Assembly: GCA_001786195.1 (NCBI GenBank)
Contig: MFVS01000024.1
Coordinates: 1 to 51,176 of the forward strand
Direction of reading: 5' to 3'
DNA: 51,176 nt
Source of the DNA: Candidatus Nomurabacteria bacterium RIFCSPLOWO2_12_FULL_40_42
Lineage (GTDB): Bacteria; Patescibacteriota; Minisyncoccia; Phycocordibacterales; UBA9973
The notes under the pieces are model-generated. The model made no database searches. It was not told where the DNA came from and worked only from the letters and a program-made list of their open reading frames with translations. The translations under genes and the position numbers were made by a program. Each line of letters starts with the position of its first letter. Positions within the stretch are counted from its first letter, which is position 1. Of the stretch, positions 8,226 to 46,944 are shown in pieces.

Positions 8226-9068
8226 TTACATAACTCTATAATCAATTTCTTTTCCATTTTCCGGAATGATTTTTTCGATGATAAATTTATTATCTTCCAG
8301 TCTAGCTTTGGTGATTATTATTCTCCTGCCATTTTGAAAAAAGAAAGTTCTGGGCCAAAGAGCGTAGGCTCTGAATTTATTGTAATTTTTTATTGCATCG
8401 CCATCTAAATCAATGAGTCCATCTTCTTTTTTTATTTTTTTGCAGTAGGTTGCTTTGGAACCGTCTTGTTTTACCCCTACCCAGCCGGGGGTCTGTAAAA
8501 TTTTTACCAAAAGTTCTCCCCCGATTTTTACCAAGCGTTTGCGCAATTCCGGAGCTTTTTCGTCAGCAAAAATATTTACTTTTTCTTGGGCTATTATATC
8601 GCCAGAATCCAATTCATACGCCATTTTCTGGATGGTGACTCCTGTTTCTGTTTCTCCATTTAAAATAGCTGATTCAACAGGGGAAGCCCCGCGGTATTTT
8701 GGCAGAAGGGAATAGTGAATGTTTAAAGAGCCAAGTTTTGGCATATTTATAATTTTTTCCGGCAGGATTTTTCCATAGGCGATGACTATAAATAGATTAA
8801 ACTCAGCATCCCTACCCAACCTCCCCCTTGATAAGGGGGAGGTGCCGAAGGCGGAGGGGGTAATTTCCCCTGGCTGAATATACGGAATTTTATTTTCTTC
8901 AGCCCAAACTTTCACCGGCGGCGGAGTAACGAGCATTTTGCGCCCCTGCGGTTTGTCCATAGAAGTGACAATAAGCGTTGGCAAAAATCCTTCTTGTTTT
9001 AAAATCTCTAATGTTTCGGAAGCAACATCCGGCGTTCCAAAAAATACAAAATTTAAATTACTGCGCAT
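8226..9068 (-). CDS. fmt: Methionyl-tRNA formyltransferase
   Basis: 280 aa. Transfers a formyl group from 10-formyl-THF to Met-tRNAfMet for initiation. Motifs: FFGTPDVASETLE at the N-terminus, SLLPKYRGASPVESAIL with the catalytic region, and LDSGDII. The catalytic Asn/His pair normally lies in NIHYSLLP, present here as LNIHYSLLPK. The protein is shorter than E. coli Fmt (315 aa) because the C-terminal domain is reduced. A palindromic repeat is inserted in frame (8811-8863), adding about SAFGTSPLSRGRLGRDAE before the FNLFIVIAYGKILP strand. It follows def with a 5-nt gap, the usual def-fmt pairing. Confidence 0.95.
   Translation of the reverse strand: MRSNLNFVFFGTPDVASETLEILKQEGFLPTLIVTSMDKPQGRKMLVTPPPVKVWAEENKIPYIQPGEITPSAFGTSPLSRGRLGRDAEFNLFIVIAYGKILPEKIINMPKLGSLNIHYSLLPKYRGASPVESAILNGETETGVTIQKMAYELDSGDIIAQEKVNIFADEKAPELRKRLVKIGGELLVKILQTPGWVGVKQDGSKATYCKKIKKEDGLIDLDGDAIKNYNKFRAYALWPRTFFFQNGRRIIITKARLEDNKFIIEKIIPENGKEIDYRVM
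8811..8863. repeat. In-frame palindromic element in fmt
   Basis: The stem CTCCCCCTT/AAGGGGGAG with a 3-nt type loop and flanks CCCTACCCAAC and CCGAAGGCGGAGGGGG. Close relatives occur in tgt (35199-35245), dnaX (31151-31199), the DUF192 gene (37725-37777) and between dnaE and the next gene (15904-15975). The reading frame of fmt is kept. Confidence 0.85.
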
Positions 9069-9073
9069 GGAAT

Positions 9074-9658
9074 TTAATTTGGTTTCGGCTCTTCGGCTTT
9101 GACATCTTTGGCGTGGTCGATAAAGAGGACGCCGTTTAGGTGGTCTGTCTCATGCTGGAAAATCTGCGCGAGCAAACCCGCTGCGCCGCGAGTAAATTTC
9201 TTGCCGTTTTCATCGTAAGCGGTGACGGTGGCCTTGAGGGACCTCCAAGTCTTGCCGTATAGTGGGCGGACCGAAAGACAACCTTCAGGCATCCAAATTT
9301 TTTCCCGGGAAAGTTTAGAAATTTTTGGATTTATGAAAATTAAGTCTTTGGGAACAAAATCTTTCTGTGCGGGGTCGCTATCTGCGCCTTCTGGCGCAGC
9401 GCTGCTTCTCGGCTCGCCAACCTGCGAAACACCCCGTCCAGAAAATTTTGTTCCCAAAACTTTCCCAGACACCACAAAAATCCGCAGTGGATACCCAATT
9501 TGCGGCGCGGCGATAGCCACGCCGTCCCCCTGGCTTTTGAGCGCCTCAGACATTTCTCTTAATATTTTTTTTATTTTAGCTGTTTTTATGTCGCCGATGA
9601 CGACTTCTTTGGCGACTTTACGGAGTATTTTTTCTTCTTTTTGTAAAATTTTCTTCAT
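9074..9658 (-). CDS. def: Peptide deformylase
   Basis: 194 aa. Removes the N-formyl group from new proteins; metal hydrolase. All three motifs are present: GDGVAIAAPQIG (motif 1), EGCLSV (motif 2, Cys metal ligand) and QHETDHLNG (motif 3, HExxH). Length is slightly above the usual 170 because an element at 9369-9435 inserts about 30 residues (VSQVGEPRSSAAPEGADSD) between motif 1 and the next strand. The flanks of this insert are mutually inverted (TTGGGAACAAAAT / ATTTTGTTCCCAA), so the DNA forms one long hairpin. Upstream of fmt and downstream of hisS on the same strand. Confidence 0.96.
   Translation of the reverse strand: MKKILQKEEKILRKVAKEVVIGDIKTAKIKKILREMSEALKSQGDGVAIAAPQIGYPLRIFVVSGKVLGTKFSGRGVSQVGEPRSSAAPEGADSDPAQKDFVPKDLIFINPKISKLSREKIWMPEGCLSVRPLYGKTWRSLKATVTAYDENGKKFTRGAAGLLAQIFQHETDHLNGVLFIDHAKDVKAEEPKPN
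9343..9460. repeat. Long-hairpin element in def
   Basis: The core at 9369-9435 (GCGGGGTCGCTATCTGCGCC ... ACACCCC) is about 80 percent identical to 35521-35586 in tgt. The core ends are themselves complementary (GCGGGGT/ACACCCC), and the bordering codons form an outer stem, TTGGGAACAAAATCTTTCTG against CAGAAAATTTTGTTCCCAA. The gene stays open through it. Confidence 0.85.
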
Positions 9659-15903: not shown

Positions 15904-15975
15904 TTAACCCCCTGAATCCCCCTTATCAGGGGGACTTTCTGAATTTTTCCTCCCTTGATAATGGGAGGCTAGGAG
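15904..15975. repeat. Intergenic palindromic repeats
   Basis: CCCCCTTATCAGGGGG and CCTCCCTTGATAATGGGAGG, sharing sequence with the elements found inside fmt, tgt and dnaX. This shows that the family also occupies intergenic DNA. Confidence 0.75.
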
Positions 15976-16029
15976 GGGTTGTATTTTATGATATACTTAA
16001 ACTATTATAATTTATTTATTAAAAAATTT

Positions 16030-30532: not shown

Positions 30533-31627
30533 ATGCATGATTTGGCATTATATCGCAAATACCGCCCGATAAGCTTCGAAGAAGTCTTGGGGCAGGATCA
30601 TATCGTAAAGGTCTTGGAAAGCTCTGTAGAGACGAATAAGGTCTCGCATGCTTACCTTTTTGTGGGTTCGCGGGGCACGGGCAAGACTTCGGTGGCTCGG
30701 ATTTTTGCTAGTGCTATAGGTGTGTCGGCAAATGATTTGTATGAGATAGACGCTGCCTCGAACAGGGGAATCGAAGACGTCAAGCTCCTGCGCGATGGGG
30801 TACGGGTTCTGCCTTTTGATTCCAAATATAAAGTTTTCATCATTGATGAAGTGCACATGCTCTCCAAGGATGCTTGGGGCGCACTGTTAAAAACTCTGGA
30901 AGAGCCGCCGAAGCATGTCATTTTTATTTTAGCCACCACGGAGCTGCAGAAAGTTCCAGAGACAATTATTTCCCGCTGTCAGGTCTTCACTTTCAAAAAA
31001 GCATCCGACACCGCTCTCAAAAAAATGTTGATGGATGTCGCCAAAGCTGAAGGCTTTGAATTGGATGTCGGCAGCGCCGAGCTTTTAGCAATTTTAGCCG
31101 ATGGATCTTTCCGCGACGGACTAGGGGAATTGCAAAAAGTTTTAAATTTCCACCCCACCCTTCGCCCTCCCCTTGACAAGGGGAGGGTTGGCGAGAGGTC
31201 TGTAAAAATTACTAGAGAAGACGTGGAATCGATCACCGGCGCGCCGAAGACCACGCTGGTGAATAATTTTATTTCCTCGATTGCCGAAAAAAATATAGAG
31301 AAAGGGATTTTGGCAGTGCAAACTGCGGCAGAAGAAAATTTGGATATGCGGCTTTATCTCAAACTCATCATCGAAAAATTCCGCCTGGCGATAATCTTGC
31401 GCTATGCGCCAAAATTATTGGATGGCAGCCTCCCTGCCGGTAGGCAGGGAGATATATCGGAAGCTGATTTGAAATTTTTGCAAGAACTGGTGAAAAAAGA
31501 CTCGGGGGGAATGCTCCGCTCGCCGGCCATATCTACCCTGTTAGAAAGTTACCAAGACATAGATAACGCATTTATAGCCGAATTGCCGCTAGAGCTGGCA
31601 TTAATAAAAATTCTGGGTGAGAATTAA
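30533..31627 (+). CDS. dnaX: DNA polymerase III gamma/tau subunit
   Basis: 364 aa, short. AAA+ clamp-loader ATPase: GSRGTGKTSVARIFA (Walker A), VFIIDEVHMLSKDAWGALLKTLEEPP (Walker B), ATTELQKVPETIISRCQ (sensor 1 and SRC). The zinc module with four Cys that normally lies between Walker A and DAASNRG is missing: ASAIGVSANDLYEIDAASNRG. No tau extension. Two in-frame palindromic inserts are seen: HPTLRPPLDKGRVGERS (31151-31199) and SLPAGRQGD (31431-31450). Confidence 0.95.
   Translation: MHDLALYRKYRPISFEEVLGQDHIVKVLESSVETNKVSHAYLFVGSRGTGKTSVARIFASAIGVSANDLYEIDAASNRGIEDVKLLRDGVRVLPFDSKYKVFIIDEVHMLSKDAWGALLKTLEEPPKHVIFILATTELQKVPETIISRCQVFTFKKASDTALKKMLMDVAKAEGFELDVGSAELLAILADGSFRDGLGELQKVLNFHPTLRPPLDKGRVGERSVKITREDVESITGAPKTTLVNNFISSIAEKNIEKGILAVQTAAEENLDMRLYLKLIIEKFRLAIILRYAPKLLDGSLPAGRQGDISEADLKFLQELVKKDSGGMLRSPAISTLLESYQDIDNAFIAELPLELALIKILGEN
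31151..31199. repeat. Palindromic insert in dnaX (1)
   Basis: CCCTCCCCTT-GAC-AAGGGGAGGG stem with CACCCCACCC / GGTTGGCGAG flanks; same family as in fmt and tgt. Confidence 0.85.
31431..31450. repeat. Palindromic insert in dnaX (2), LPAGRQG type
   Basis: TCCCTGCC-GGTA-GGCAGGGA. The same translated heptapeptide LPAGRQG occurs in mreC (34580-34600). Confidence 0.85.
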
Positions 31628-31670: not shown

Positions 31671-32945
31671 ATGAGACAATCACAACTTTTTACTAAAACT
31701 AGGAAGGAGGCATCTTCCGAGGAGGTTTCCCGCAATGCCGAACTTCTCATACGCGGCGGTTTTATTCACAAGGAGCTCGCAGGGGTTTATAGTTATCTGC
31801 CCTTAGGATTACGAGTGCTCAAGAAAATTGAAAATATCATCAGAGAGGAAATGAACAAGGTGGGCGGCCAGGAAGTTTTGATGTCCTCGATGCAACCAAA
31901 AGAAAATTGGGAAAAAACTGGTCGCTGGGAGACCATGACAGATTTATATAAAGTGAGCGACATCTCGGGCAGAGAGGTTGCGCTCGGGCCGACTCACGAA
32001 GAAATTGTCGTGCCAATTTTGAAAAATTATGTTTCTTCCTATAAAAATTTTCCTAAAAATTCTTCTCTGGCTATTTATCAGATTCAAAACAAGTTTCGGA
32101 TGGAACTCCGAGCTAAAAGTGGCATCTTGCGGGGTCGCGAATTTATGATGAAAGACATGTATTCATTTCATACCTCTGCAGAGGATTTTGAAAAATTTTA
32201 TGAAAAAATGAAGGAGATTTACAAAACCATTTTCGACCGGGTTGGGATTGGCCACTTGACTTATCTCACTTTTGCTTCCGGCGGCACTTTCTCCAAATAT
32301 TCGCACGAATTTCAGACCATCACTTCGCTCGGAGAGGATACCATTTATATTGATGAAGCTAGCGGCACCGCTCTTAATAAAGAAGTGTTGAATGATGAAG
32401 TTTTGATCCAGTTTCATTTAATCAAAGAAAAATTGGTGGAGCATAAATCCATCGAAGTTGGAAATATTTTTGATCTTAAAACAAAATATTCCAAGCCCTT
32501 CGACCTGTCTTTTACTGACGACCAAGAGCAAAAACACCCAGTTTTAATGGGTTGTTATGGCATTGGGCTCTCCCGTCTCATGGGGACGGTGGTGGAAGTT
32601 CTTTCCGACGACAAAGGCATTATTTGGCCGGAATCTATCGCGCCCTTCCAGGTTCATTTGCTTGCGCTCGGTGAAGATAAAGAGGTAAAAGAGCAAGCTG
32701 GGAAAGTTTATGAAAGTTTAGAGAGGAATAATATTGAAGTTTTGTTCGACGATCGTGAGGGTATATCGGCTGGCGAAAAATTTGCCGATGCAGATCTTCT
32801 AGGTATGCCTTACCGAGTAGTTGTGTCAGAGAGGAGTCTGAAGGAGAAGGGCGTAGAGATAAAAAAAAGGAATGAAGAAAAAGGCAAAATTATTTCTTTC
32901 AAAGAATTATTAGCCCAGATAGCGCCTAAAGCCCTATCTATCTAG
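31671..32945 (+). CDS. proS: Prolyl-tRNA synthetase (short, no editing domain)
   Basis: 424 aa class II synthetase: SYLPLGLRVLKKIENIIREEMNKVGGQEVLM, LGPTHEE (motif 2 area), FRMELRAKSGILRGREFMMKDMYSFH, MGCYGIGLSRLMGTVVEVL (motif 3), then the anticodon-binding domain. Bacterial-type ProRS is about 570 aa; the roughly 180-residue INS domain that clears mischarged Ala is absent, with only a short SGTALNKE linker. The last codons (APKALSI) and the stop lie in a palindrome that continues into the spacer before mreB. Confidence 0.96.
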   Translation: MRQSQLFTKTRKEASSEEVSRNAELLIRGGFIHKELAGVYSYLPLGLRVLKKIENIIREEMNKVGGQEVLMSSMQPKENWEKTGRWETMTDLYKVSDISGREVALGPTHEEIVVPILKNYVSSYKNFPKNSSLAIYQIQNKFRMELRAKSGILRGREFMMKDMYSFHTSAEDFEKFYEKMKEIYKTIFDRVGIGHLTYLTFASGGTFSKYSHEFQTITSLGEDTIYIDEASGTALNKEVLNDEVLIQFHLIKEKLVEHKSIEVGNIFDLKTKYSKPFDLSFTDDQEQKHPVLMGCYGIGLSRLMGTVVEVLSDDKGIIWPESIAPFQVHLLALGEDKEVKEQAGKVYESLERNNIEVLFDDREGISAGEKFADADLLGMPYRVVVSERSLKEKGVEIKKRNEEKGKIISFKELLAQIAPKALSI

Positions 32946-32966
32946 ATAGGGCTTTAGGCGCTATCT
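32917..32966. repeat. Perfect 23-bp palindrome at the proS stop
   Basis: Arms of 23 bp (AGATAGCGCCTAAAGCCCTA...) with a 4-nt loop; a partial third copy GGCGCTATCTGC follows at about 32971. It spans the end of proS. No T-run, so not a classical terminator. Confidence 0.9.
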
Positions 32967-32986
32967 GCAAGGCGCTATCTGCAACT

Positions 32987-34832: not shown

Positions 34833-36162
34833 TGCATTTTAAAATTAAAAAAAAATTTCCGCCCGAGACGGATCCGCCTTTAGTGGAAAAAAATATTTAG
34901 GACGTGCAGGAATCTTGACAACTGCGCATGGCGTGATTCATACTCCGGCCTTTGTGCCGGTCGGGACCAAGGCGAGCGTGAAGGCCTTGACCCCAGAGCA
35001 GGTTTTAGACCTTGGCGCGGAAGTTATACTTGCTAATACTTATCATCTTTATTTACAGCCTGGGGATGAATTGGTGGCCGCGACCGGCGGCTTGCACAAA
35101 TTTATGAATTGGCCGGGTCCTTTGATGACGGACTCCGGAGGTTTTCAAGTTTTTTCTTTAGGGGCGGCTTATGGGAAAGAAATCTCAAAGATAAGACCCT
35201 TACCCAACCTCCCCCTTATCAAGGGGGAGGAGAAAGGAGGGGGTGCTGATGATTCAGATGCGCCTCGCCTGGCCAAAATAGGGTCTGACGGCGTCTCCTT
35301 CAAGTCGCATTTGGACGGTAGTGTTCATTACATTACGCCGGAGAAATCGATCCAAATTCAGCACAACCTCGGCGTGGATATAATTTTTGCATTCGACGAA
35401 TGCACTAGCCCAGCCGAAAATTTGAAATATCAAGAAGAAGCACTGGAGCGGACGCACAGATGGGCGGAGAGGAGTTTGGAGGAGCATAAAAGATTAAGCG
35501 CGGAAGAAAAAGCTTTCCTTGCGGGGTCGCTATCTTCGCGTGCTCGCGGAGCGTTGCCTCTCGGCTCGTCAGCCTGCGAGACACCCCACAATGAAACTTT
35601 TTCTTCCGCGCTTTTTGGCATCGTCCAAGGCGGGCGGGATGAAAATTTACGCAAGAGATCTGCAAAATTTTTAAGCGATTTGGATTTTGACGGATATGGC
35701 ATTGGCGGTTCATTTGCCAAAGAGGATATGTTTTCCACTGTCAAATGGGTGAACGAAGTTCTCCCCGAAGACAAACCCCGGCATCTCCTCGGCATCGGCG
35801 AGCCGGAAGATCTATTCGGGGCGATAGAAAATGGCTGTGATTTATTTGACTGTGTCGTGCCCACTCGGATTGCTCGCAATGGCCAGCTTTATACCCGGCA
35901 AGGAAAAATAAATATAACCAACGCTAAATATAAAAAAGACTTCAACCCTCTGGAAGAAGACTGTGGTTGTTATACTTGCAAAAGTTATACTTGCGCATAC
36001 ATTTCCCACCTTTTCCGCGGCAAAGAAATGCTGGCGGCAACTCTCGCTTCGATACACAATTTATATTTCATTGTGAATTTAGTGAAAAAAATCCGGCAAT
36101 CTATTCTAGATGGTAAATTTTTCGAGTTTAAGGAGGAGTTTTTGAAAAAGTACCCAAATTAG
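34832..36162 (+). CDS. tgt: Queuine tRNA-ribosyltransferase, 5' end frameshifted
   Basis: Main frame from TTG 34915 (415 aa): TTAHGVIHTPAFVPVGTKASVKALTPEQV, LMTDSGGFQVFSLG, FGIVQGG, IGGSFAKEDMF, and a CYTC..C zinc site (DCGCYTCKSYTC). Exchanges guanine at tRNA position 34. In-frame codons upstream encode YLGRAGI, which belongs to the conserved start, but the only ATG (34832, overlapping mreC stop) is in another frame (MHFKIKKKF). A -1 shift in the A9 run 34847-34855 or at A-AAA-AAT in 34887-34894 would join them. Two palindromic inserts (35199-35245 and 35521-35586) add about 40 residues. Confidence 0.93.
35199..35245. repeat. Palindromic insert in tgt (1)
   Basis: CCTCCCCCTT-ATC-AAGGGGGAGG (35208-35230) with flanks TTACCCAA and AGAAAGGAGGGGG; same family as fmt and dnaX. 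Confidence 0.85.
35502..35606. repeat. Long-hairpin insert in tgt (2)
   Basis: Core 35521-35586 is a relative of the def element. Outside it, GCGCGGAAGAAAAAG is mirrored by CTTTTTCTTCCGCGC, so the host codons form an outer stem as in def. Confidence 0.85.
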
Positions 36163-37663: not shown

Positions 37664-38122
37664 ATGAAAAAAAATTTCGCTATAGTTGTAATTTTTTTTA
37701 TAGTTTTTATTACTCTTAAAAGTTCACCTCACCCCTTAGCCCCTCTCCGAAACTCGGAGAGGGGTTGGGGAGAGGTCAAAATTGCCGGGCAAAATGTAAA
37801 AGTGGAACTAGCGATGACTCCGGAAGAACAGGCGCTAGGTCTTTCGGGACGGGATGAATTAAAAGAAGACGAAGGGATGCTATTTGTTTTTTCTCAACCC
37901 GGAAATTACCCCTTTTGGATGAAGGATATGAATTTCGAAATAGATATTATCTGGATTAGTGAAGATAAAAGAGTAATTTATATAAAAAAAGATGCCAGGC
38001 CGGAATCGTATCCAGAAATTTATGGGCCAGAAAATAGCGTCAAATATGTCTTAGAAGTTGTTTCTGGTTTTTCCGATAAAAATGATTTGCAAGTGGGGGA
38101 TGGGGTTCTATTTACTTACTAA
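37664..38122 (+). CDS. DUF192 family exported protein
   Basis: 152 aa. N-terminal hydrophobic helix (FAIVVIFFIVFITL; signal peptide or anchor), then the DUF192 domain: VELAMTPEEQALGLSGRDELKEDEGMLFVF, PFWMKDMNFEIDIIWI, and KYVLEVVSGFSDKN. Function of the family is unknown; it is a small beta-barrel found mostly outside the membrane. A palindromic element (37725-37777) is inserted exactly between the membrane helix and the domain. Confidence 0.88.
   Translation: MKKNFAIVVIFFIVFITLKSSPHPLAPLRNSERGWGEVKIAGQNVKVELAMTPEEQALGLSGRDELKEDEGMLFVFSQPGNYPFWMKDMNFEIDIIWISEDKRVIYIKKDARPESYPEIYGPENSVKYVLEVVSGFSDKNDLQVGDGVLFTY
37725..37777. repeat. Palindromic insert in the DUF192 gene
   Basis: CCCCTCTCCGA-AAC-TCGGAGAGGGG with CACCTCACCCCTTAG / TTGGGGAGAGGT flanks; frame kept. 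Confidence 0.85.
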
Positions 38123-38144: not shown

Positions 38145-38478
38145 GGTCCTGTATTAGATAGCTACTCCGACTTCGGTCGGGGAGGAAAGTCCGAACACGC
38201 AGTTTCGACCTTGGGTCGGAATTAAACGTAGCGGGTAACGCCCGCCATCCGCAAGGATTGAGGTGAGAACAGTGACGAATCCCTCACCAATTGTTAAATT
38301 GGTGAGGGGGTGAAACGGCAAAATCCTTACGCGCGTGCAAGATCGTGTTCCCTCACCAGTTTAACTTAAACTGGTGAGGGAGAGAATCGCTTGACCCTGA
38401 GAGTAATTGAAGGGCTAGATAAATTGCTATCGTCCGACTTTGGTCGGACTACAAAATTCGGCTTATAGATACAAGACC
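38145..38478 (+). ncRNA. rnpB: RNase P RNA, type A
   Basis: Catalytic RNA that matures the 5' end of tRNAs. Diagnostic conserved regions: GAGGAAAGTCCGAACAC near the 5' end and GGGCTAGATAAATTGC plus TTCGGCTTATAGAT near the 3' end. The ends pair as helix P1 (GGTCCTGTAT / ATACAAGACC). Two hairpins with nearly the same stem end (CCCTCACCA...TGGTGAGGG) occur at 38281-38308 and 38350-38380 and are unusual. Followed by a strong terminator. Confidence 0.93.
38281..38380. repeat. Two related palindromes within rnpB
   Basis: CCCTCACCAATT-GTTA-AATTGGTGAGGG and CCCTCACCAGTTTAA-C-TTAAACTGGTGAGGG. They share 9 bp at the stem base and differ in the tip. Confidence 0.85.
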
Positions 38479-38487
38479 AAGAACATG

Positions 38488-38721: not shown

Positions 38722-40803
38722 ATGGCGGACTTACCTGAAATACCCATAAATAAAGAAATTACATATCTTGGCATCACCACTTATCGAGACAAGAATCAGC
38801 TCTTTGGCATAAAGCGCAAAGATCGGCGTCAGCATGTTTATATTCTCGGAAAATCCGGTACTGGTAAATCCGTCCTGATGTTCAACATGATTATCCAGAA
38901 CATCAAAAACGGCGACGGAGTCTGTATGGTGGATCCGCATGGCGAAAATGTCGAAGCTGTCCTTTCGGCTATTCCGCCGGAGCGTATCAAGGATGTGGTT
39001 TATTTCAATCCGGCCGATGCCGATCACCACATCGGTTTTAATGTTTTGGAATTGATCGATCCGCAATACAAGCACTTGGTGGCCTCGGGACTCATGGGAA
39101 TTTTTACGAAAATTTGGGCCAACGCCTGGAGTGCCCGAATGGAATACATTTTGAATAATGCGATTCTGGCGCTCCTCGATACACCGGGCACGACACTCCT
39201 CGGTATTCCACGTATGCTGGTGGATAAAGATTATCGCCAAAAAATAATTTCCAATTTGAAAGATCCGGTCATCAAAGCTTTCTGGGTGCACGAATACGAA
39301 GCTTGGCAGGATAAATTTCGAAATGAAGCCATCGCGCCGATCCAAAACAAAGTCGGGCAGTTTCTTTCGACTTCGATCATCCGCAATGTCGTCGGCCAAT
39401 CCAAGAGCACGATCAATATCTTTGACATGATGAACGAAAAGAAAATTTTCTTAGTGAATGTTTCCAAGGGGCGTATCGGCGAGGATAATTCCGGCCTTCT
39501 CGGTGGAATGATTATCACCAAAATTCAGCTGGCGGCCATGGAGCGGGTGCGTATTCCCGAAGAATCCCGCCAGGATTTTTACCTGTATGTCGATGAATTC
39601 CAAAATTTCGTAACCGATGCCTTTGCCGGCATTTTGTCGGAAGCTAGAAAATATCGATTGAACTTGACGGTGGCGCACCAGTATACCGCCCAGCTGGTGG
39701 TGGACAAAAGCTCTGCGGTGCGCGACGCGGTTTTCGGCAACGTCGGCACGATGATTGTTTTTCGAGTCGGCGCCGATGATGCGGAATTTTTGGAGTCCGA
39801 ATTTGATCCGGAATTTACGCCGCAGGACTTGGTGAATTTGCCGAACTATAAAATTTATTTGAAACTCATGATTGATGGCGTGACCTCTCGCCCTTTTTCT
39901 TCGAAAACTCTGCCGCCCTTGGTTCACTCCGGCGATAAAAAAATTGAAGAGGCTGTGATTAAATCATCCCGGGCGCTGTATTGCCGGCCAAAGGAAGTGG
40001 TGGAAAGAGAAATTAATGATTGGAGCGGAATGTCTTTGGGCAATGAGGGGGATACCGGGAGCGGAATCTTGGAAAAATTTCCGGTCATCTGTTCAAATTG
40101 TAAAAAAGAAACGACGGTACCCTTCAAGCCGGAACCCGGGCGCCCCGTTTACTGCAAGGACTGCATCGCGAAAATAAAGTCCGGAGAAATAAAAGTTACC
40201 AAGGGATCGGAAAATCAGATCAAGCACGACGAAGTCACTTTCTTCAAACCACTCTCGGATCTTGGAATCGAATTCGAACGGAAATATAAAGGCCATGTGG
40301 AAGAAGAGAACCGGCATCCGGAGCGAGCGTATACTCATGTTAAGGACATTCCAGTTGCACCAAAGCGACCGGGTATATTGGGAGCTATTAAAAAAGTCTT
40401 TACTTCATCGACACCGCAAGCTAAAGTAAATATTCCTCCAAAACAACCACTAAAGCCTGCCCGTCCGACAGGCGGGTCTGCCCGCCCAAGCGGGGCGAAT
40501 ACTGTTTTGCGGGAAGTTTTAAATAAAATAAAAAAGCCGCAACTTTCGCCCAAGGTAGATTCAGTTAATGTTCCGCCGTCGGTTTCCTTGGATACACTCA
40601 AAAATAAAATAAAAGAATCCGCGCCCGCAAGCCATTCCAAAGACCGCGCCGCAAGTCCGGAAGAGATGAATAAATTGAAGGATTTAATCTCCAAAAAAGT
40701 AGAAAATAAAAAAGAAGAAACTACTCCACCTCCGACACTTTCCCCTATACTCAAAAATCCAAAAGAAGTTCCGGAAGATGTGTTAAGAAAAATATTAGAA
40801 TGA
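38722..40803 (+). CDS. VirD4/TraD-like ATPase with zinc ribbon
   Basis: 693 aa. Walker A GKSGTGKS at about residues 43-50, Walker B FYLYVDEFQNF at about 286-296, and VAHQYTAQL behind it, as in TraM-recognition/TraD-type coupling ATPases. There is no membrane segment, unlike conjugative TraD, so it is a soluble ring ATPase that could move DNA or protein at the membrane through partners. Residues about 456-480 form a zinc ribbon (CSNCKKETTVPFKPEPGRP, CKDC), and the rest is a K/P-rich disordered tail. Its stop overlaps the start of the Cys-rich protein (ATGA), which ties the two together. Confidence 0.9.
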   Translation: MADLPEIPINKEITYLGITTYRDKNQLFGIKRKDRRQHVYILGKSGTGKSVLMFNMIIQNIKNGDGVCMVDPHGENVEAVLSAIPPERIKDVVYFNPADADHHIGFNVLELIDPQYKHLVASGLMGIFTKIWANAWSARMEYILNNAILALLDTPGTTLLGIPRMLVDKDYRQKIISNLKDPVIKAFWVHEYEAWQDKFRNEAIAPIQNKVGQFLSTSIIRNVVGQSKSTINIFDMMNEKKIFLVNVSKGRIGEDNSGLLGGMIITKIQLAAMERVRIPEESRQDFYLYVDEFQNFVTDAFAGILSEARKYRLNLTVAHQYTAQLVVDKSSAVRDAVFGNVGTMIVFRVGADDAEFLESEFDPEFTPQDLVNLPNYKIYLKLMIDGVTSRPFSSKTLPPLVHSGDKKIEEAVIKSSRALYCRPKEVVEREINDWSGMSLGNEGDTGSGILEKFPVICSNCKKETTVPFKPEPGRPVYCKDCIAKIKSGEIKVTKGSENQIKHDEVTFFKPLSDLGIEFERKYKGHVEEENRHPERAYTHVKDIPVAPKRPGILGAIKKVFTSSTPQAKVNIPPKQPLKPARPTGGSARPSGANTVLREVLNKIKKPQLSPKVDSVNVPPSVSLDTLKNKIKESAPASHSKDRAASPEEMNKLKDLISKKVENKKEETTPPPTLSPILKNPKEVPEDVLRKILE

Positions 40804-42470
40804 ATCAAGAAACTAAACAGTGTAAAAAATGTAATCAAGATTTTATTTTAGATTCGGACGATCTGGGTTTTTACGAGAAGATGAAAGTGCCACCACCGAA
40901 AGTCTGTCCTGACTGTCGTTTCAAAATGCGGGCAATGTTCAGAAACGAGATCGTTCTTTATAACCGCATTTGCGAAATGTGCGAAAAATCCACGATTTCA
41001 ATGTATGGGTCGAAATCCCCCTATACTATTTATTGCAAAGATTGCTGGCTCTCTGAAAAGTGGGATCCATTTTCTTATGGAAAAGATTATGATCCCCAAA
41101 AGCCATTTTTTGAACAGATGAAAGAGTTGATGTCGCGCGTTCCAAAAGCGGGAATTTTTGCATCCGAAGATGTTGGCCCAAATATAAATAGCGAGTATAC
41201 CAATTTTGCAGGGGGAAATAAAAATTGCTATTTCATTTTTAATTCAGGACCTAATAATGAAGAATGCGCTTATTCTCGCGGATTAATTTTATGTCGTGAA
41301 GTGCTAGACTCGTATTTTTCAAACAAGACGGAAAAGATCTATGAAGCGATAAATGTAAATTTAAGTTCTGGAATTGTATGGGCTCAGAATTCAGATAATT
41401 GTATTGATTCCGCTTTTCTTTTAAATTGCTCCAATTGCCATAATTGTTTTGGCTGTGTGAATTTACGTCATAAATCGTACCATTTTTTCAACCAACCATT
41501 ATTAAGAGACGAATATCAAAAAAGGATATCGGAAATTATTGGAAGTTATAAAAATATGGAGAAATTTCGGGTCCAGTTTGAAGAATTTTCAATGCGTTTT
41601 CCAAGAAAAGAAAATAACAATTTGAAAAATGAGAATGTTTCCGGAGATTATATTTTTGAATCAAAAAACTGTCACAATTCATATGAAATATCTTTTTGCG
41701 AGGATTCCAAATTTCTTTTTTCAAACAAACGTACAAAGAATTGTTACGATTTAATCGGTCATGGCCGAAGAAGCGAGTTATTATTAGAATGTGTTGCTGT
41801 GGGGACTTCAAGCGATGTCATTGGTTCATGGTGGAGTACTGGATCTCATGATGTTTATTATTCCTTTGCTTTGCGTTCTTGTGAGTATTGCTTCGGGTGC
41901 GATAGCGTCAGAAATGGTAAATATGTGATTTTAAACAAGCGATATAACAAAGAAGAATATGAAAGGATTCGCTTACAAATTATCGCTGAGTTGAAAGAAA
42001 AAAATTTATATGGTCTTTATTTTCCATCCGAGCTAGCGCCTTTTGCCTATAACGAAACAATCGCCCAAGACAATTTTCCGCTCTCCAAAGAAGAAGCGAT
42101 AACGCAAGGTTTTCGCTGGGAAGATGATATCCAAAAAACGGAAGGGAAGGAGACGATGGAGCCCGAAAAAATTCCAGATCATATCAAAGATGTGCTGGAT
42201 TCTATCACCAGTGAAATTTTAAGATGTGTAGATTGCAATCGAAATTATAAAATCATTGCGCAAGAACTTTTGTTTTATAGAAAAATGAATCTTCCGATAC
42301 CCCGGAAATGTTTTTACTGCCGGCACCAAGACCGCATTACCCGCCGCGGGCCGTATAAATTCTGGAATCGCAATTGCGCTAAGTGCGAAAAAGAAATCAC
42401 CACGAATTATTCTCCCAACCGGCCGGAAATAGTATACTGTGAAAAGTGTTACCAGCAGGAAGTTTACTGA
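40800..42470 (+). CDS. Cys-rich zinc-ribbon protein, paralog 1
   Basis: 556 aa with over 40 Cys. Order: N-terminal zinc ribbon (CKKCNQDF...FYEKMKVPPPKVCPDCR), a second knuckle (CEMC...YCKDCW), two central modules with the signature C..C.NCFGCVNLR.K.Y...N and SCEYCFGCDSVRNGKYVILN(K)RY(N)KEEYE, and a C-terminal ribbon pair (CVDC...CFYCRHQDR and CAKCEK...YCEKCYQQEVY). No catalytic domain is seen. A similar family is repeated in many CPR genomes, function unknown. Possibly a metal-rich scaffold or nucleic-acid binder working with the ATPase it overlaps. Confidence 0.8.
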   Translation: MNQETKQCKKCNQDFILDSDDLGFYEKMKVPPPKVCPDCRFKMRAMFRNEIVLYNRICEMCEKSTISMYGSKSPYTIYCKDCWLSEKWDPFSYGKDYDPQKPFFEQMKELMSRVPKAGIFASEDVGPNINSEYTNFAGGNKNCYFIFNSGPNNEECAYSRGLILCREVLDSYFSNKTEKIYEAINVNLSSGIVWAQNSDNCIDSAFLLNCSNCHNCFGCVNLRHKSYHFFNQPLLRDEYQKRISEIIGSYKNMEKFRVQFEEFSMRFPRKENNNLKNENVSGDYIFESKNCHNSYEISFCEDSKFLFSNKRTKNCYDLIGHGRRSELLLECVAVGTSSDVIGSWWSTGSHDVYYSFALRSCEYCFGCDSVRNGKYVILNKRYNKEEYERIRLQIIAELKEKNLYGLYFPSELAPFAYNETIAQDNFPLSKEEAITQGFRWEDDIQKTEGKETMEPEKIPDHIKDVLDSITSEILRCVDCNRNYKIIAQELLFYRKMNLPIPRKCFYCRHQDRITRRGPYKFWNRNCAKCEKEITTNYSPNRPEIVYCEKCYQQEVY

Positions 42471-42544
42471 AGATCCACGCCAGATTAGTATCAGCGTACT
42501 ATGAGTATATGAAAAATGTTGACGAAAACCGAATATGCCAGAAC

Positions 42545-42703
42545 CCCGAACGAAAGCAAAGCTTCGTACGGGGCAGGCTGCAAAAAAATTATGAAATATA
42601 AATCACAAAATGTAGTGTGTCAGAATTGTAAGGTTAGCTTCACAATCGATCCGGAGGATTTTAATTTTTACGAGAAAATCAAAGTCCCGCCGCCGACCTT
42701 TTG
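42545..42703 (+). repeat. Long direct repeat, copy 1
   Basis: 159 bp matching 45222-45380 with one mismatch. It covers about 46 bp upstream and the first 37 codons of paralogs 2 and 3, and begins with a palindrome CCCGAACGAA-AGCAAAGC-TTCGTACGGG. Confidence 0.92.
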
Positions 42704-44356
42704 TCCGCTTTGCCGAGCGCAGAGGCGGATGGCTTTCAGGAATGAGCGGAAACTTTTTAAAGTCAAAGATCATTTTACCGGAGAAGATATTTTTTCTACC
42801 TATCCAGCAGAAAGCGGAAGGAAAATAATTACTCGCGAAGAATGGTTTGGGGACAATTGGGATCTAATGGAATATGGAGCTTCGTATGATTTTTCCAGAA
42901 ATTTTTTTGAACAGCTGATGGAACTTCAGAAAAAAGTGCCCATGTATAATTTCAATGTTATAAGAATGGTCAACAGCCCTTATTCTTTCAATGCCACGGC
43001 GCTCAAAAATTGCTATCTCTTATGCAACTCCAATAGTTCAGAAGATTGTATGTATGGCAATGCGGTGGATTTTTCCAAAGATTGTGTGGATAATTCTCAT
43101 ATAAATCATTCTGAGCGGTGTTATGAATCTTTTTGGTTGGAGAATTGTTACCAATGCTATTTTACTACTAGGTCTATGGAATCCAGAAATCTTTATTTCT
43201 GCAGAGGTTGTGTGGGATGTAGTGATTGTTTTGGTTGTACCAATCTACGTAGTACTTCTTATTGCATTTTTAACCAAAATTATTCCAAAGAAGAATATTA
43301 CGAAAAAATAAAAAGTATGCAACTCGATACTTTTTCCGGAAACAAAAAAGCCAGGGAAAAAGCTCGAGCATTTTGGGATACGCAACCTGTCAAATATCAT
43401 CAAGGACTTAAAAATTTAAATTCAACCGGTTCTTATGTCACAAACTGCAAAAATGTTAATGACAGCTACCTGGTTCGAGAAAGTGAAAATATGCGTTATT
43501 GTCAATACCTGCAAGTGCCTAAAAATAAGGATAATTATGATGTCACAAATTGGGGAGAATATATTGAACTGTGCTATGAAACAATAGAGTGCGGGGAAAA
43601 TTCTTATAATAATAAATTTTCCAGAAATTGCTGGCCGGCTTGTAAGCACAATGAATATTGTATGGATAATTTTAGCTCCTCGGATTGTTTCGGTTGCGTG
43701 GGATTAAAGAAAAAACAATATTGTATTTTGAATAAACAATACACTAAGGAAGAATACGAAAAAATGGTAGAAAAAATTAAAAAAAATATGGATGAAATGC
43801 CTTATGTTGATGCACAAGGTTTGGTCTACAAATATGGCGAGTTTTTTCCTATAGAACTCTCACCGTTCGGATACAACAATTCGTTAGCGGTTCAACATTT
43901 CCCAATGACTCAAGAAGAGGCGCAAGATAAAAAGTATCCTTGGATAGAAGTGGGAAGGGGAGAATACAACATCACTAAAAAAGCGCGCGAACTTCCCGAT
44001 TCAATCAATGAAGTTTCAGATCAAATATTAAAAGAAGTGATTGAATGCGAAAATTGCAAAAATGCTTATCGTATATTAGAAAATGAATTAATTTTTTACG
44101 CAAAGAAAAACTGCCGCTTCCACGAATGTGCAATGAATGCAGACATGAGCGCAGAATAGAGGATAGGCTGAAATTGCATTTATATGAAAGGTCTTGTATG
44201 TGTGCTGGAACTATTGACTCAACCAATACATACAAAAATACTGTTTCCCATATCCACAAAGATTCTCCTTGTGCGGAAAAATTCAAAACTGGATATGCGC
44301 CAGGTCAACCAGAAATTGTCTACTGTGAAAAGTGTTATCAGCAGGAGGTTTACTAG
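42591..44356 (+). pseudogene. Cys-rich zinc-ribbon protein, paralog 2, frameshifted
   Basis: Starts at ATG 42591 (same start as paralog 3; the track start at 42516 is further upstream). It keeps the N-terminal ribbon, the CFGCTNLRSTSYCIFNQNYSKEEY and CFGCVGLKKKQYCILNKQYTKEEYE modules and ELSPFGYNNS. At 44106-44110 an A5 run seems one base short: the frame ends as ...KKNCRFHECAMN, whereas adding one A gives KKKLPLPRMCNECRHERR and continues to the conserved end CEKCYQQEVY at 44356. So it is a recent frameshift, a sequencing error in a homopolymer, or programmed slippage. All other regions look intact. Confidence 0.85.
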
Positions 44357-44383
44357 CCTTTGGCTAGTGTATTAAAATACGAA

Positions 44384-44428
44384 GATAGCATAATGGCAGC
44401 GGTCGCTGCCATTATGCTATCTTGAGTT
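44384..44428 (+). terminator. Long hairpin terminator between paralog 2 and rsmE
   Basis: 18-bp perfect stem GATAGCATAATGGCAGCG with loop GT and its complement, followed by TTGAGTTTTTTTTG. A smaller hairpin CTAGCC-TTT-GGCTAG lies just before, at 44353-44367. The convergent layout means it may also serve rsmE. Confidence 0.8.
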
Positions 44429-44449
44429 TTTTTTGTTTGCCGTAAATTC

Positions 44450-45160
44450 TTAGATTCCATGAACTGCGCGATAAGTCGCCACGATGGCTGCGGTAACGCC
44501 CGTGAGAATGAGTGATCCAAGGGAAGCGACAGAGAAGCCGCAATCTTTTGCCAATTCTATTTCTCGCTCGGTGAAGCCGCCTTCCGGTCCGATAAAAATG
44601 CTCACATTTTTTGCATTTTTACCTGCCCCGTTCTTTTCGGGGTCGGGTATGTATTCTTTCGCTCCCGGGTGAAAAATAATTTTTTCGCCTTCTGCTTTTT
44701 TAAGCGTGTCTTCAAAATTTAAAATAGGGGAGATGGTCGGCGTGAAATTTTGTCCGCATTGCTCGCTCGCTTCCAAAATTATTTTCTCCAAGCGGGGAAG
44801 ATTCAAGCCGGTTTTGATCGTTCGCTCGGTGATGATCGGCGTGATAGAGGAGACTCCACACTCGACCGCTTTTTGCGCCGCTAATTCAAAATTTTCTTTT
44901 TTGAGAATTGCTAAATACAAATGCACTTTCTTAGCAATTTCTTTTTCCGTATGTACTTCCAAAACCTGGCCAGTGATTTTTTCTTGGTAAATTTTATCTA
45001 GCCGAACTTTGGCGCTTTGACCCCTCCCATCTCCAAGAATTACCAAATCGTCAACTTTAAGCTCCAAAACGTCCTTTATTTGCTTGATAATTTTGTTATC
45101 TTTGATTTCTATCTCCTGTTTCTGTAAGTCGAAATTTCCAATAAACCTGTGTAATTTCAT
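44450..45160 (-). CDS. rsmE: 16S rRNA (uracil-1498 N3) methyltransferase
   Basis: 236 aa, normal length. SPOUT methyltransferase: N-terminal PUA-like part (HRFIGNFDLQ...HLYLAILKKENFELAAQKAVECGVSSITPIITERT) and knot motif FIGPEGGFTEREIELAKDCGFSVASLG. The next conserved piece, usually LG..ILRTETA, reads LGSLILTGVTAA, a change in the SAM-binding loop. The minus-strand TATCAT 7 nt before the ATG gives a leaderless start. It lies between paralogs 2 and 3 of the Cys-rich family, in the opposite direction. Confidence 0.92.
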   Translation of the reverse strand: MKLHRFIGNFDLQKQEIEIKDNKIIKQIKDVLELKVDDLVILGDGRGQSAKVRLDKIYQEKITGQVLEVHTEKEIAKKVHLYLAILKKENFELAAQKAVECGVSSITPIITERTIKTGLNLPRLEKIILEASEQCGQNFTPTISPILNFEDTLKKAEGEKIIFHPGAKEYIPDPEKNGAGKNAKNVSIFIGPEGGFTEREIELAKDCGFSVASLGSLILTGVTAAIVATYRAVHGI

Positions 45161-45221
45161 AATTTATATGATACACTTTTAGAGCAAAGATTCAAAATAT
45201 ATGGAAACTAGAAACTGCCAT

Positions 45222-45380
45222 CCCGAACGAAAGCAAAGCTTCGTACGGGGCAGGCTGCAAAAAAATTATGAAATATAAATCACAAAATGTAGTGTGTCAG
45301 AATTGTAAGGTTAGCTTCATAATCGATCCGGAGGATTTTAATTTTTACGAGAAAATCAAAGTCCCGCCGCCGACCTTTTG
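45222..45380 (+). repeat. Long direct repeat, copy 2
   Basis: Partner of 42545-42703. Confidence 0.92.
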
Positions 45381-46944
45381 CCCGGAATGCCGTTATATTC
45401 GTCGGCTTTTGGATAGAAACGAATACAATCTATATAAAAGAAAATGTGATGCAACTGGAAAGGATATTATTTCTATCTATCGATCGGATGCGCCGTTTCC
45501 GGTATATAATCAAGAATATTGGAAATCCGATAAATTTGATGGAATGGAATACGGACGCAATTTTGACTTTGATCGTTCATTTTTTGAGCAATACGAAAAA
45601 CTTCGCCGAGTAGTGCCGCATTTGGCGATCGTAAATTCTAACAGCGTTAATAGCGAATACACAAATCAATCACAAGACAATAAAGATTGTTATATGCTTG
45701 TCACCAGCGAATCTTGTGAAAAGTGCATGTATGGAAGCTGGTGTCAGCGAGGATGTTATTTTTTAAGTGATTGTTACATGGCGGAGAAAAGTGAGTTTTG
45801 TTATGAATGTATAAATATCAAAAAATGTTCAAAATGTATGTGGGCATATGATTGTTCAGACTGCGTAAATGTTTATTTTTCGAGAGATTGTCGCGGATGC
45901 ACTGACTGTTTTGGATGCGTCGGGCTAAGAAGTAAACAATACTATTATTTTAATGAAAATCTAGGAAAAGAAGAGTATGAGAAAAAAGTTGGCAAAATAA
46001 TTTGGAATAGAAGTTTTATAAAAGAAACAAAAGAAAAATTTTTCAAATTTCGAGCAAGTTTTCCGGTCAAATATTACCACGGCTCGCAAATTCAAAATTC
46101 TTTCGGGGATTATATTGAAAATTGCGAACGAACGCGCCACGCATTTAATTGCAAAGATAATAAAGATACAGCGTACATGCAGGATGCGTGGCAGCAAATA
46201 GAAGACTGTAGAGATTGCACTGAAATAATTACTGCTCAATTAGCTTATGAAATTCAAGGTGTTGAAATTCCACATAGAACAATAGTGGCTCGGAGTTGTT
46301 TTAACACTATCACTGACTCGTATTATTGCGACATGTGTTTTACTACACAGGATTGTTTTGGTTGTTTTGGTCTAAAGCAAAAACAGTACTGTATTTTTAA
46401 CAAACAATACCCCAAAGAAGAATATTTTATTTTGAAAGAAAAAATTATTGAGCACATGCGGCAAACAAAAGAATGGGGTGAATATTTTCCTGCTCGTGTG
46501 TCGCCATTTGCTTATAACGAATCAATGGCGCAGGATTATTTTCCTTTGACGAAAGAGCAGGCCATAAAGGCTAGATACACTTGGTATGATCGACCACCCA
46601 GGGATTATAAAATTACCGAAGGGATTTACAAATGTGCCACTCAAGATTCATCGGAGAAAGAGAAATATCCTTTATGCACTACTGCCTTTCGAACTACCGA
46701 CATGGAGTTATCTTTGTACAAAATTCTGAAATTGCCGATTCCAGAAAAATGCTTTCCCTGCCGTAGGCAAGATCGTTTTAAGTTGCGAAATCCTCGCAAA
46801 CTTTGGCACCGATCTTGTATGTGCGAAAAAGGAAATCATTTACACGGGGGAGAGAAATGTGAAGTAGAATTTGAAACCAGCTATGCTCCAGACCGTCCGG
46901 AAATTGTCTATTGCGAGAAGTGTTACCAGCAGGAGGTGTATTAA
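45268..46944 (+). CDS. Cys-rich zinc-ribbon protein, paralog 3
   Basis: 558 aa. Same order as the other two: N-terminal ribbon CQNCKVSF...PPPTFCPECR, central CTDCFGCVGLRSKQYYYFN and CFGCFGLKQKQYCIFNKQYPKEEY modules, PFAYNESMAQDYFP, and C-terminal ribbons (CFPCRRQDRFKLRNPRKLW, CMCEK...YAPDRPEIVYCEKCYQQEVY). A middle stretch is extremely Cys-rich (CYECINIKKCSKCMWAYDCSDCVNVYFSRDCRGC). The first 37 codons are DNA-identical to paralog 2 except one base. Function unknown. Followed, after a palindromic spacer, by the second VirD4-like ATPase. Confidence 0.8.
   Translation: MKYKSQNVVCQNCKVSFIIDPEDFNFYEKIKVPPPTFCPECRYIRRLLDRNEYNLYKRKCDATGKDIISIYRSDAPFPVYNQEYWKSDKFDGMEYGRNFDFDRSFFEQYEKLRRVVPHLAIVNSNSVNSEYTNQSQDNKDCYMLVTSESCEKCMYGSWCQRGCYFLSDCYMAEKSEFCYECINIKKCSKCMWAYDCSDCVNVYFSRDCRGCTDCFGCVGLRSKQYYYFNENLGKEEYEKKVGKIIWNRSFIKETKEKFFKFRASFPVKYYHGSQIQNSFGDYIENCERTRHAFNCKDNKDTAYMQDAWQQIEDCRDCTEIITAQLAYEIQGVEIPHRTIVARSCFNTITDSYYCDMCFTTQDCFGCFGLKQKQYCIFNKQYPKEEYFILKEKIIEHMRQTKEWGEYFPARVSPFAYNESMAQDYFPLTKEQAIKARYTWYDRPPRDYKITEGIYKCATQDSSEKEKYPLCTTAFRTTDMELSLYKILKLPIPEKCFPCRRQDRFKLRNPRKLWHRSCMCEKGNHLHGGEKCEVEFETSYAPDRPEIVYCEKCYQQEVY

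What the first reader, a model, noticed from the sequence alone, without database searches (positions are those of the whole stretch)
8811..8863. A second palindrome family (CCTCCCCCTT-AAGGGGGAGG) in fmt, tgt, dnaX, DUF192 and spacers
At least four genes carry it in frame and two spacers carry it too. In the DUF192 protein it sits exactly at the junction of membrane anchor and domain. Intragenic and intergenic copies share the stem, so this is a dispersed repeat under selection to keep frame, not simple local slippage.
Basis: seen in the sequence. Interest (0 to 1): 0.75.

Follow-up and report, generated by a model that had tools for sequence, protein, structure and literature searches.

The report
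In-frame mobile palindromes with DUF559 endonuclease
A short DNA palindrome has been inserted, without breaking the reading frame, into many essential genes of this tiny bacterium; the same kind of palindrome brackets genes for an uncharacterised DNA-cutting enzyme (DUF559) in several bacterial phyla, so it looks like an unrecognised mobile element that lives inside working proteins.

Summary
The palindrome is real and far beyond chance. Exact copies in the window lie in fmt and tgt. dnaX and DUF192 carry related stems, not the same sequence, and one spacer carries degenerate ones; the other "spacer" pair lies in RNase P RNA. In the 768-kb genome (a relative of Ca. Nomurabacteria MAGs) and in 80 congeners, such stems recur against zero reversed controls. 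Of 60 copies examined, 41 sit inside intact ORFs (29% expected for random insertion, p=4e-10), using all three codon phases equally: a dispersed element selected only to keep frame. Own-genome hosts include RecA, UvrA, RNase HI, TopA, PNPase, ArgS, IscS and MurB. In fmt the same disordered loop holds unrelated palindromes in different relatives. A 24-specified-base arm is shared with Chloroflexota, Bacteroidota, Pseudomonadota and Spirochaetota. Neighbour analysis found a partner: DUF559 (Vsr-like nuclease) genes are bracketed by these palindromes (32.5 versus 1.6 hairpins per 10 kb, near versus far; none at Y1/RAYT or rnpB flanks). Palindrome-DUF559-palindrome units sit in frame inside LeuS (this genome; same site in a Bacteroidota genome), MetH and RecG. 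Best reading: a splicing-independent, palindrome-bounded endonuclease element and its short derivatives. Nuclease-driven movement is inferred, not shown.

The parts
8808..8861 (-). Palindromic element (family A) inserted in frame in fmt; read on the minus strand: ACCCCCTCC-GCCTTCGGC-ACCTCCCCCTT-ATC-AAGGGGGAGGTTGGGTAGGGAT, encoding TPSAFGTSPLSRGRLGRD
   Evidence: relatives' fmt without it or with other inserts at the same loop; AF2 pLDDT<50 for residues 75-88:
8226..9068 (-). fmt, methionyl-tRNA formyltransferase (host gene)
   Evidence: PF00551 1e-34, PF02911
35196..35244 (+). Family A element in frame in tgt, encoding PLPNLPLIKGEEKGGG; relatives have TKITDPSLLIPERF there
   Evidence: low pLDDT 75-118:
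34915..36162 (+). tgt, queuine tRNA-ribosyltransferase (host gene)
   Evidence: PF01702 8.7e-140
31150..31200 (+). Close variant (CCCTCCCCTTG stem) in frame in dnaX, encoding TLRPPLDKGRVGERS; congener G014 carries a similar insert at the same site
30533..31627 (+). dnaX (host gene)
   Evidence: PF13177
37734..37790 (+). Related palindrome (CCCCTCTCCGA stem 37740-37764; outer limits approximate) between the hydrophobic anchor and the domain of a DUF192 protein, encoding SSPHPLAPLRNSERGWGEV
15907..15980 (.). Two degenerate copies in the spacer upstream of dnaE (CCCCCTTATCAGGGGG; CCTCCCTTGATAATGGGAGG...GGAGGGGT)
9356..9449 (-). Different palindrome family (B) in frame in def, encoding GVSQVGEPRSSAAPEGADSDP; listed for comparison
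35508..35601 (+). Family B copy in frame in tgt (second variable loop, SLSSRARGALPLGSSACETP)
   Evidence: low pLDDT 204-226:
38146..38481 (+). RNase P RNA carrying two palindromes (38281-38308, 38349-38381) absent from most congeners' RNase P examined

Best explanation
The repeat is the short, non-autonomous form of a mobile DNA element whose larger form is palindrome - DUF559 endonuclease gene - palindrome. Shown by sequence: copies are dispersed; they lie in frame in disordered loops of housekeeping proteins; different palindromes occupy the same loop in related species; DUF559 genes are bracketed by these palindromes in several phyla; complete palindrome-DUF559-palindrome units sit in frame inside LeuS, and DUF559 with flanking repeat-coded linkers in MetH and RecG, with no stop codon. 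Inferred: the DUF559 nuclease (Vsr-like PD-(D/E)XK fold, homologous by profile to the mobile-intron endonuclease 3R3P) cuts the unoccupied allele or the palindrome, and repair copies the element in; this can act on short palindromes in trans; copies that break frame or fold are purged, so survivors lie in tolerant loops. No intein or intron is needed because the insert is tolerated as a linker or extra domain.
For: Abundance versus reversed controls. In-frame copies: 41/60 in intact ORFs versus 29.2% expected, p=4e-10; codon phases 15/11/15. Own-genome hosts confirmed by Pfam: RNase HI, UvrA, ArgS, a class I aaRS, RecA, IscS (x2), MurB, R3H protein, TopA; PNPase by sequence. Same fmt loop with family A in 4 genomes needs 4 changes on the gene tree, at least 3 forced by supported branches. 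DUF559: near-flank hairpins 32.5 vs 1.61 per 10 kb in the genus (24/30 loci one side, 10/30 both); Y1 0/27 and rnpB 0/27 loci; named genomes 35.0 vs 0.77 (12/25 both). L369: DUF559 bracketed by exact family-A stems with the same GGTTGGGTAGGG tail as the fmt copy. In the own genome two stems lie 3' of a truncated DUF559 gene (L008). DUF559 in 33/34 motif-bearing named genomes; even phylum sample 7/10 stem genomes versus 94/370, p=0.005. Stem count tracks DUF559 count, rho 0.56; partial 0.48 given Y1. LeuS unit: 168-residue insert at residues 236-242 of T. thermophilus LeuRS; same site in L404. In-frame DUF559 domains form one clade, SH-aLRT 96, 0/500 shuffles. 3R3P E=5e-5.
Against: No transposition, homing or cleavage was observed; DUF559 biochemistry is not tested here, and one recent paper reads a DUF559 protein as a putative mismatch-repair nuclease (PMC12907096). 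Four congeners carry at least 4 stems without a detected DUF559. The cross-genome correlations are not corrected for relatedness; the independent-pairs test had too few pairs. The hairpin definition was set after seeing loci, though applied equally to controls. The named genomes were picked because they hold the motif. No clean empty/filled pair at strain level was found: the tgt copies replace 10-14 residues and are not simple insertions.
Confidence: 0.6

Rival explanations
1. The palindromes are REPs moved by the Y1 (RAYT/TnpA-REP) transposases that the genome encodes.
For: Five Y1_Tnp genes in the genome; 55/80 congeners have them and stem counts correlate with Y1 counts, rho 0.45.
Against: None of the Y1 loci examined is flanked by a C-rich stem at short range (0/27); some have their own flanking palindromes (e.g. 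CCAGATAGCGC in L012). Only 4/118 cross-phylum loci have a Y1 gene within the locus, none adjacent. The partial correlation with Y1 (0.32) is weaker than with DUF559 (0.48).
Confidence: 0.12
2. No dedicated enzyme: palindromes arise and spread by template switching, ectopic recombination and horizontal transfer of gene segments, and stay because loops tolerate them.
For: Perfect arms with compensated changes (24 of 30 non-exact listed stems) could come from quasipalindrome correction; same frame and orientation in fmt of four species could be gene exchange.
Against: Does not explain bracketing of DUF559 genes by matching palindromes in several phyla, nor whole palindrome-DUF559-palindrome units in frame in LeuS.
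Confidence: 0.2
3. Palindromes are functional RNA hairpins (terminators, stability or processing signals) or encode a selected peptide linker.
For: Stable stems; some copies are intergenic near gene ends (L007, L008).
Against: Most copies are inside ORFs, all three codon phases are used, orthologues lack them; no Rfam family matches the element.
Confidence: 0.05
4. Palindromes merely accumulate around DUF559 genes because those genes are dispensable landing zones.
For: DUF559 genes are variable and scattered; palindromes also nest inside DUF559 in LeuS (L406-L408).
Against: Other dispensable genes (Y1) show none; both-sided matching pairs such as L369, L367, L373; LeuS units have palindromes at both junctions.
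Confidence: 0.15

Closest known systems
Rickettsia palindromic elements (RPE) (Ogata et al. 2000; reviewed in PMC2229807)
   Same: Palindromes inserted in frame in conserved protein genes, also in RNase P RNA; protein tolerates the insert.
   Different: RPEs are 105-146 bp and Rickettsia-specific, and no DUF559 partner is described there. These are about 50 bp, share arms across phyla, and have an endonuclease-encoding larger form.
REP elements with RAYT/TnpA-REP transposases, REPtrons (PMC3733652, PMC2817692, PMC8266576)
   Same: Short imperfect palindromes, many copies, bracket a nuclease gene; some intragenic copies known (recB in Xanthomonas).
   Different: Partner here is a DUF559 PD-(D/E)XK-type nuclease, not an HUH Y1 transposase; copies are mostly intragenic.
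Homing endonucleases of the EDxHD/Vsr-like type (3R3P; families listed in PMC6083498)
   Same: Related nuclease fold; same-site residence in a conserved gene in distant hosts.
   Different: No intron or intein seen; the nuclease domain stays as an internal part of the host protein, flanked by palindromes.
Small dispersed repeats and bacterial MITEs (PMC2229807, PMC10969869)
   Same: Non-autonomous short dispersed repeats, fused in frame to ORFs.
   Different: Partner gene and cross-phylum conserved arm.

Membership tests
Rickettsia palindromic elements | Palindrome inserted in frame in protein-coding genes | tested here: met
   41/60 copies in intact ORFs; Pfam-confirmed hosts
Rickettsia palindromic elements | Length 105-146 bp and RPE sequence families | tested here: not met
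   Element about 50 bp; found in other phyla; RPE sequences themselves were not compared
REP/RAYT (GTAG REP) | Palindromes flank a Y1 tyrosine transposase gene | tested here: not met
   0/27 Y1 loci with C-rich hairpins within 200 b; 34 loci inspected
REP/RAYT (GTAG REP) | Mostly extragenic location | tested here: not met
   41/60 intragenic
REP/RAYT (GTAG REP) | GTAG tetranucleotide at the foot of the hairpin at one end | tested here: inconclusive
   GGGTAGGGGT tail contains GTAG but inside the outer arm
Homing endonuclease element | Nuclease homologous to a known homing endonuclease | tested here: met
   DUF559 profile hits 3R3P mobile intron protein E=5e-5
Homing endonuclease element | Same insertion site in distant hosts | tested here: met
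   LeuS site in the Nomurabacteria-like genus and in Aequorivita todarodis (L362, L404)
Homing endonuclease element | Cleavage of the empty allele and repair-driven copying | not testable with these tools
   needs biochemistry or genetics
Intein or group I/II intron | Self-splicing sequence around the nuclease | tested here: inconclusive
   No intein domain in Pfam scan of LeuS, MetH, RecG hosts; the insert is palindrome-coded linker plus DUF559. No intron search was run on these loci; the frame is open throughout

The most novel reading that the evidence does not exclude
A widespread class of mobile element, bounded by pyrimidine-rich palindromes and encoding a DUF559 endonuclease, inserts in frame into essential genes without any splicing and spawns short non-autonomous palindromes that remodel loops of housekeeping proteins across several phyla.
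Probability: 0.5. Interest if true: 0.88.

Novelty: new variant of a known kind. Interest (0 to 1): 0.8.

Why it matters
Short palindromic repeats inside proteins have lacked an identified mover (the REP survey PMC3733652 finds no dedicated transposase for the CGTC/RPE type). A nuclease gene bracketed by the same palindromes, and whole units sitting in frame in LeuS, MetH and RecG, gives a concrete, testable candidate and a possible role for DUF559, a very common domain of unknown function. It also shows a way by which essential proteins gain new loops and even whole domains without splicing, in some of the smallest bacterial genomes.

Tried and rejected
Y1/RAYT as mover: rejected as the main explanation by flank inspection, although counts correlate. 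Known RNA family: none matches the element. Literature by sequence string: no paper holds the motif. DUF559 with palindromes in the literature: none among the 14 DUF559 papers by title and opening lines of the abstract; the library lacks most subscription papers. 'of' with a locus id is not accepted. Tree-independent pair test of DUF559 versus stem abundance had only 3 pairs and says nothing. Single-origin reading of the fmt insert: 4 changes needed, but one gain with several losses is not excluded.

Full report
WHAT IS THERE. The stem CCTCCCCCTT-NNN-AAGGGGGAGG occurs exactly twice in the window, in fmt (8820-8842, minus strand) and tgt (35208-35230). With its arms the element is about 50 b: ACCCC(T)ACCC-x-CCTCCCCCTT-NNN-AAGGGGGAGG-x-GGAGGGGGT. 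In fmt one arm carries a second small palindrome, GCCTTCGGC; in another own-genome copy (L006) that position holds a different palindrome, GCCCAGAAAATTCTGGGC, so sequence changes while pairing stays. dnaX carries a close variant; DUF192 carries a palindrome of the same kind but another sequence; the spacer upstream of dnaE has two decayed copies. The other supposed spacer copies lie in RNase P RNA.

MORE THAN CHANCE. Own genome: 8 matches with up to 3 mismatches, 0 for the reversed pattern. In 80 genomes of the genus, the related stem CCTCCCCTT-NNN-AAGGGGAGG (up to 2 mismatches) occurs in 49, up to 24 per genome, 342 in all, with 0 reversed controls. A common sub-family is CCTCTCC/GGAGAGG, a compensated change; 24 of 30 listed non-exact stems have perfect arms.

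IN FRAME, NO PREFERRED PHASE. In the own genome copies lie in open frame inside RNase HI, UvrA, ArgS, a class I aaRS, RecA, IscS (two), MurB, an R3H protein, TopA (Pfam), PNPase (by sequence), fmt, tgt and dnaX. The RecA alignment to solved RecA ends at the insert. Across 60 distinct copies from eight genomes of the genus (own included), 41 are in intact ORFs of at least 150 aa with 25 or more residues on each side. Inserting the same elements at random in the same loci gives 29.2% (p=4e-10), and the coding-density proxy is 73.2% (p-value). Codon phases are 15/11/15 (p=0.68). Frame is kept; the peptide is not what is selected.

SAME LOOPS, DIFFERENT INSERTS. In tgt, own and G042 carry near-identical inserts (PLPNLPLIKGEEKGGG) where 28 others read ITKITDPSLLIPERF or similar; a second tgt loop is filled by other palindromes, often family B. 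In fmt one loop holds family A (4 genomes), family B, other palindromes, or a short linker. On the fmt tree built without that loop, family A needs 4 changes, at least 3 on supported branches. AlphaFold2 gives pLDDT<50 there (tgt 75-118 and 204-226; fmt 75-88).

ACROSS PHYLA. Three of these records are the fmt loci of congeners, which places the window's genus among MAGs named Candidatus Nomurabacteria (G019=MFUM01, G026=MFVH01, G013=MFWB01, by matching sequence).

THE PARTNER. Clustering ORFs around those loci showed a recurrent DUF559 nuclease. In the genus, C-rich hairpins within 200 b of DUF559 number 39 in 12.0 kb (32.5 per 10 kb) against 1.61 farther out; 24 of 30 loci have one, 10 have both sides. 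Y1 and rnpB loci: none near. Named genomes of several phyla: 35.0 versus 0.77, 12 of 25 both sides. L369 (G492) is the clearest: DUF559 between two exact family-A stems with the tail AAGGGGGAGGTTGGGTAGGGGT; the fmt copy has AAGGGGGAGGTTGGGTAGGGAT. In the own genome, two stems lie just 3' of a truncated DUF559 gene (L008). In distant members of the phylum, stems in G181:C18 and G387:C3 lie 21 and 42 b from DUF559 matches. Co-occurrence: 33/34 motif-bearing named genomes against 2/14 control genomes, and in an even sample of 380 genomes 7/10 stem-bearing versus 94/370 others (p=0.005). Stem and DUF559 counts correlate (rho 0.56; partial 0.48 given Y1), uncorrected for relatedness.

THE WHOLE UNIT INSIDE PROTEINS. 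The own LeuS has a 168-residue insert between T. thermophilus LeuRS residues 236 and 242, at the start of the editing domain; it is palindrome-coded linker, DUF559 domain, palindrome-coded linker, with no stop. Eight congeners share it (L346, L350, L355, L356, L371, L406-L408). A Bacteroidota genome (Aequorivita todarodis, L404) has DUF559 at the same LeuS site. MetH of a Phaeodactylibacter MAG (L398) and RecG of Aequorivita (L402, L403) carry DUF559 in frame. These in-frame domains form one clade across two phyla (SH-aLRT 96, short search). Further palindromes nest inside the DUF559 domain (L406-L408, L371). The DUF559 profile matches 3HRL (endonuclease-like protein, 1e-38) and 3R3P (mobile intron protein, 5e-5).

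MECHANISM. Shown: dispersal, frame keeping, loop preference, bracketing of DUF559, whole units in frame. Inferred: DUF559 cuts the empty site or the palindrome and repair copies the element; short palindromes are derivatives moved in trans. Not shown: any movement, cut or target duplication.

KNOWN OR NEW. In-frame palindromes are known in Rickettsia, including in RNase P RNA (PMC2229807), and intragenic REPs elsewhere (PMC3733652). I found no report tying such palindromes to DUF559 or describing splice-less DUF559 insertion in LeuS, MetH or RecG, but the library holds only open-licence papers. I therefore file it as a new variant of a known kind, with a categorically new element class as the strongest reading not excluded.

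Noticed in passing
38281-38308 and 38349-38381 in RNase P RNA 38146-38481: Two perfect palindromes (CCCTCACCAAT..., TCCCTCACCAGTTT...) inside RNase P RNA; most congener RNase P RNAs examined lack such palindromes, and lengths in the genus range from about 290 to 500 nt.
   Followed up: partly
32916-32967 and L012 1272-1300, 1974-2000: Palindrome CAGATAGCGC...GCGCTATCTG shares its stem with palindromes flanking a Y1_Tnp (RAYT-like) gene elsewhere in this genome, a likely separate REP/RAYT pair.
   Followed up: partly
9356-9449 and 35508-35601: Family B, a 94-b palindromic element (GCGGGGTCGC...ACACCCCGC), in frame in def and tgt; common in the genus in more than one orientation and frame.
   Followed up: partly
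31430-31451: Palindrome CTCCCTGCCGGTAGGCAGGGAG in dnaX encodes SLPAGRQG; a similar LPAGRQ peptide is seen at the N-terminus of the own RecA (L266).
   Followed up: no
L265 (own genome C8:91900-95100): Class I aminoacyl-tRNA synthetase with an in-frame histidine phosphatase domain (PF00300) inside.
   Followed up: no
L346, L371, L350, L407: LeuS of some congeners carries, beside DUF559, further in-frame stretches: an alpha/beta-hydrolase-like one between palindromes (L346, L371) and a NUDIX-like one (L350, L407); seen by eye, not searched.
   Followed up: no
1-168, 1718-1885, 1919-2071: A 168-b inverted repeat (98%) and tandem 51-b repeats of a tRNA part at the window's left end; possibly an assembly artefact.
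   Followed up: no
40800-46944: Cluster of long ORFs with repeated Cys-rich segments (zinc-ribbon-like) in tandem.
   Followed up: no
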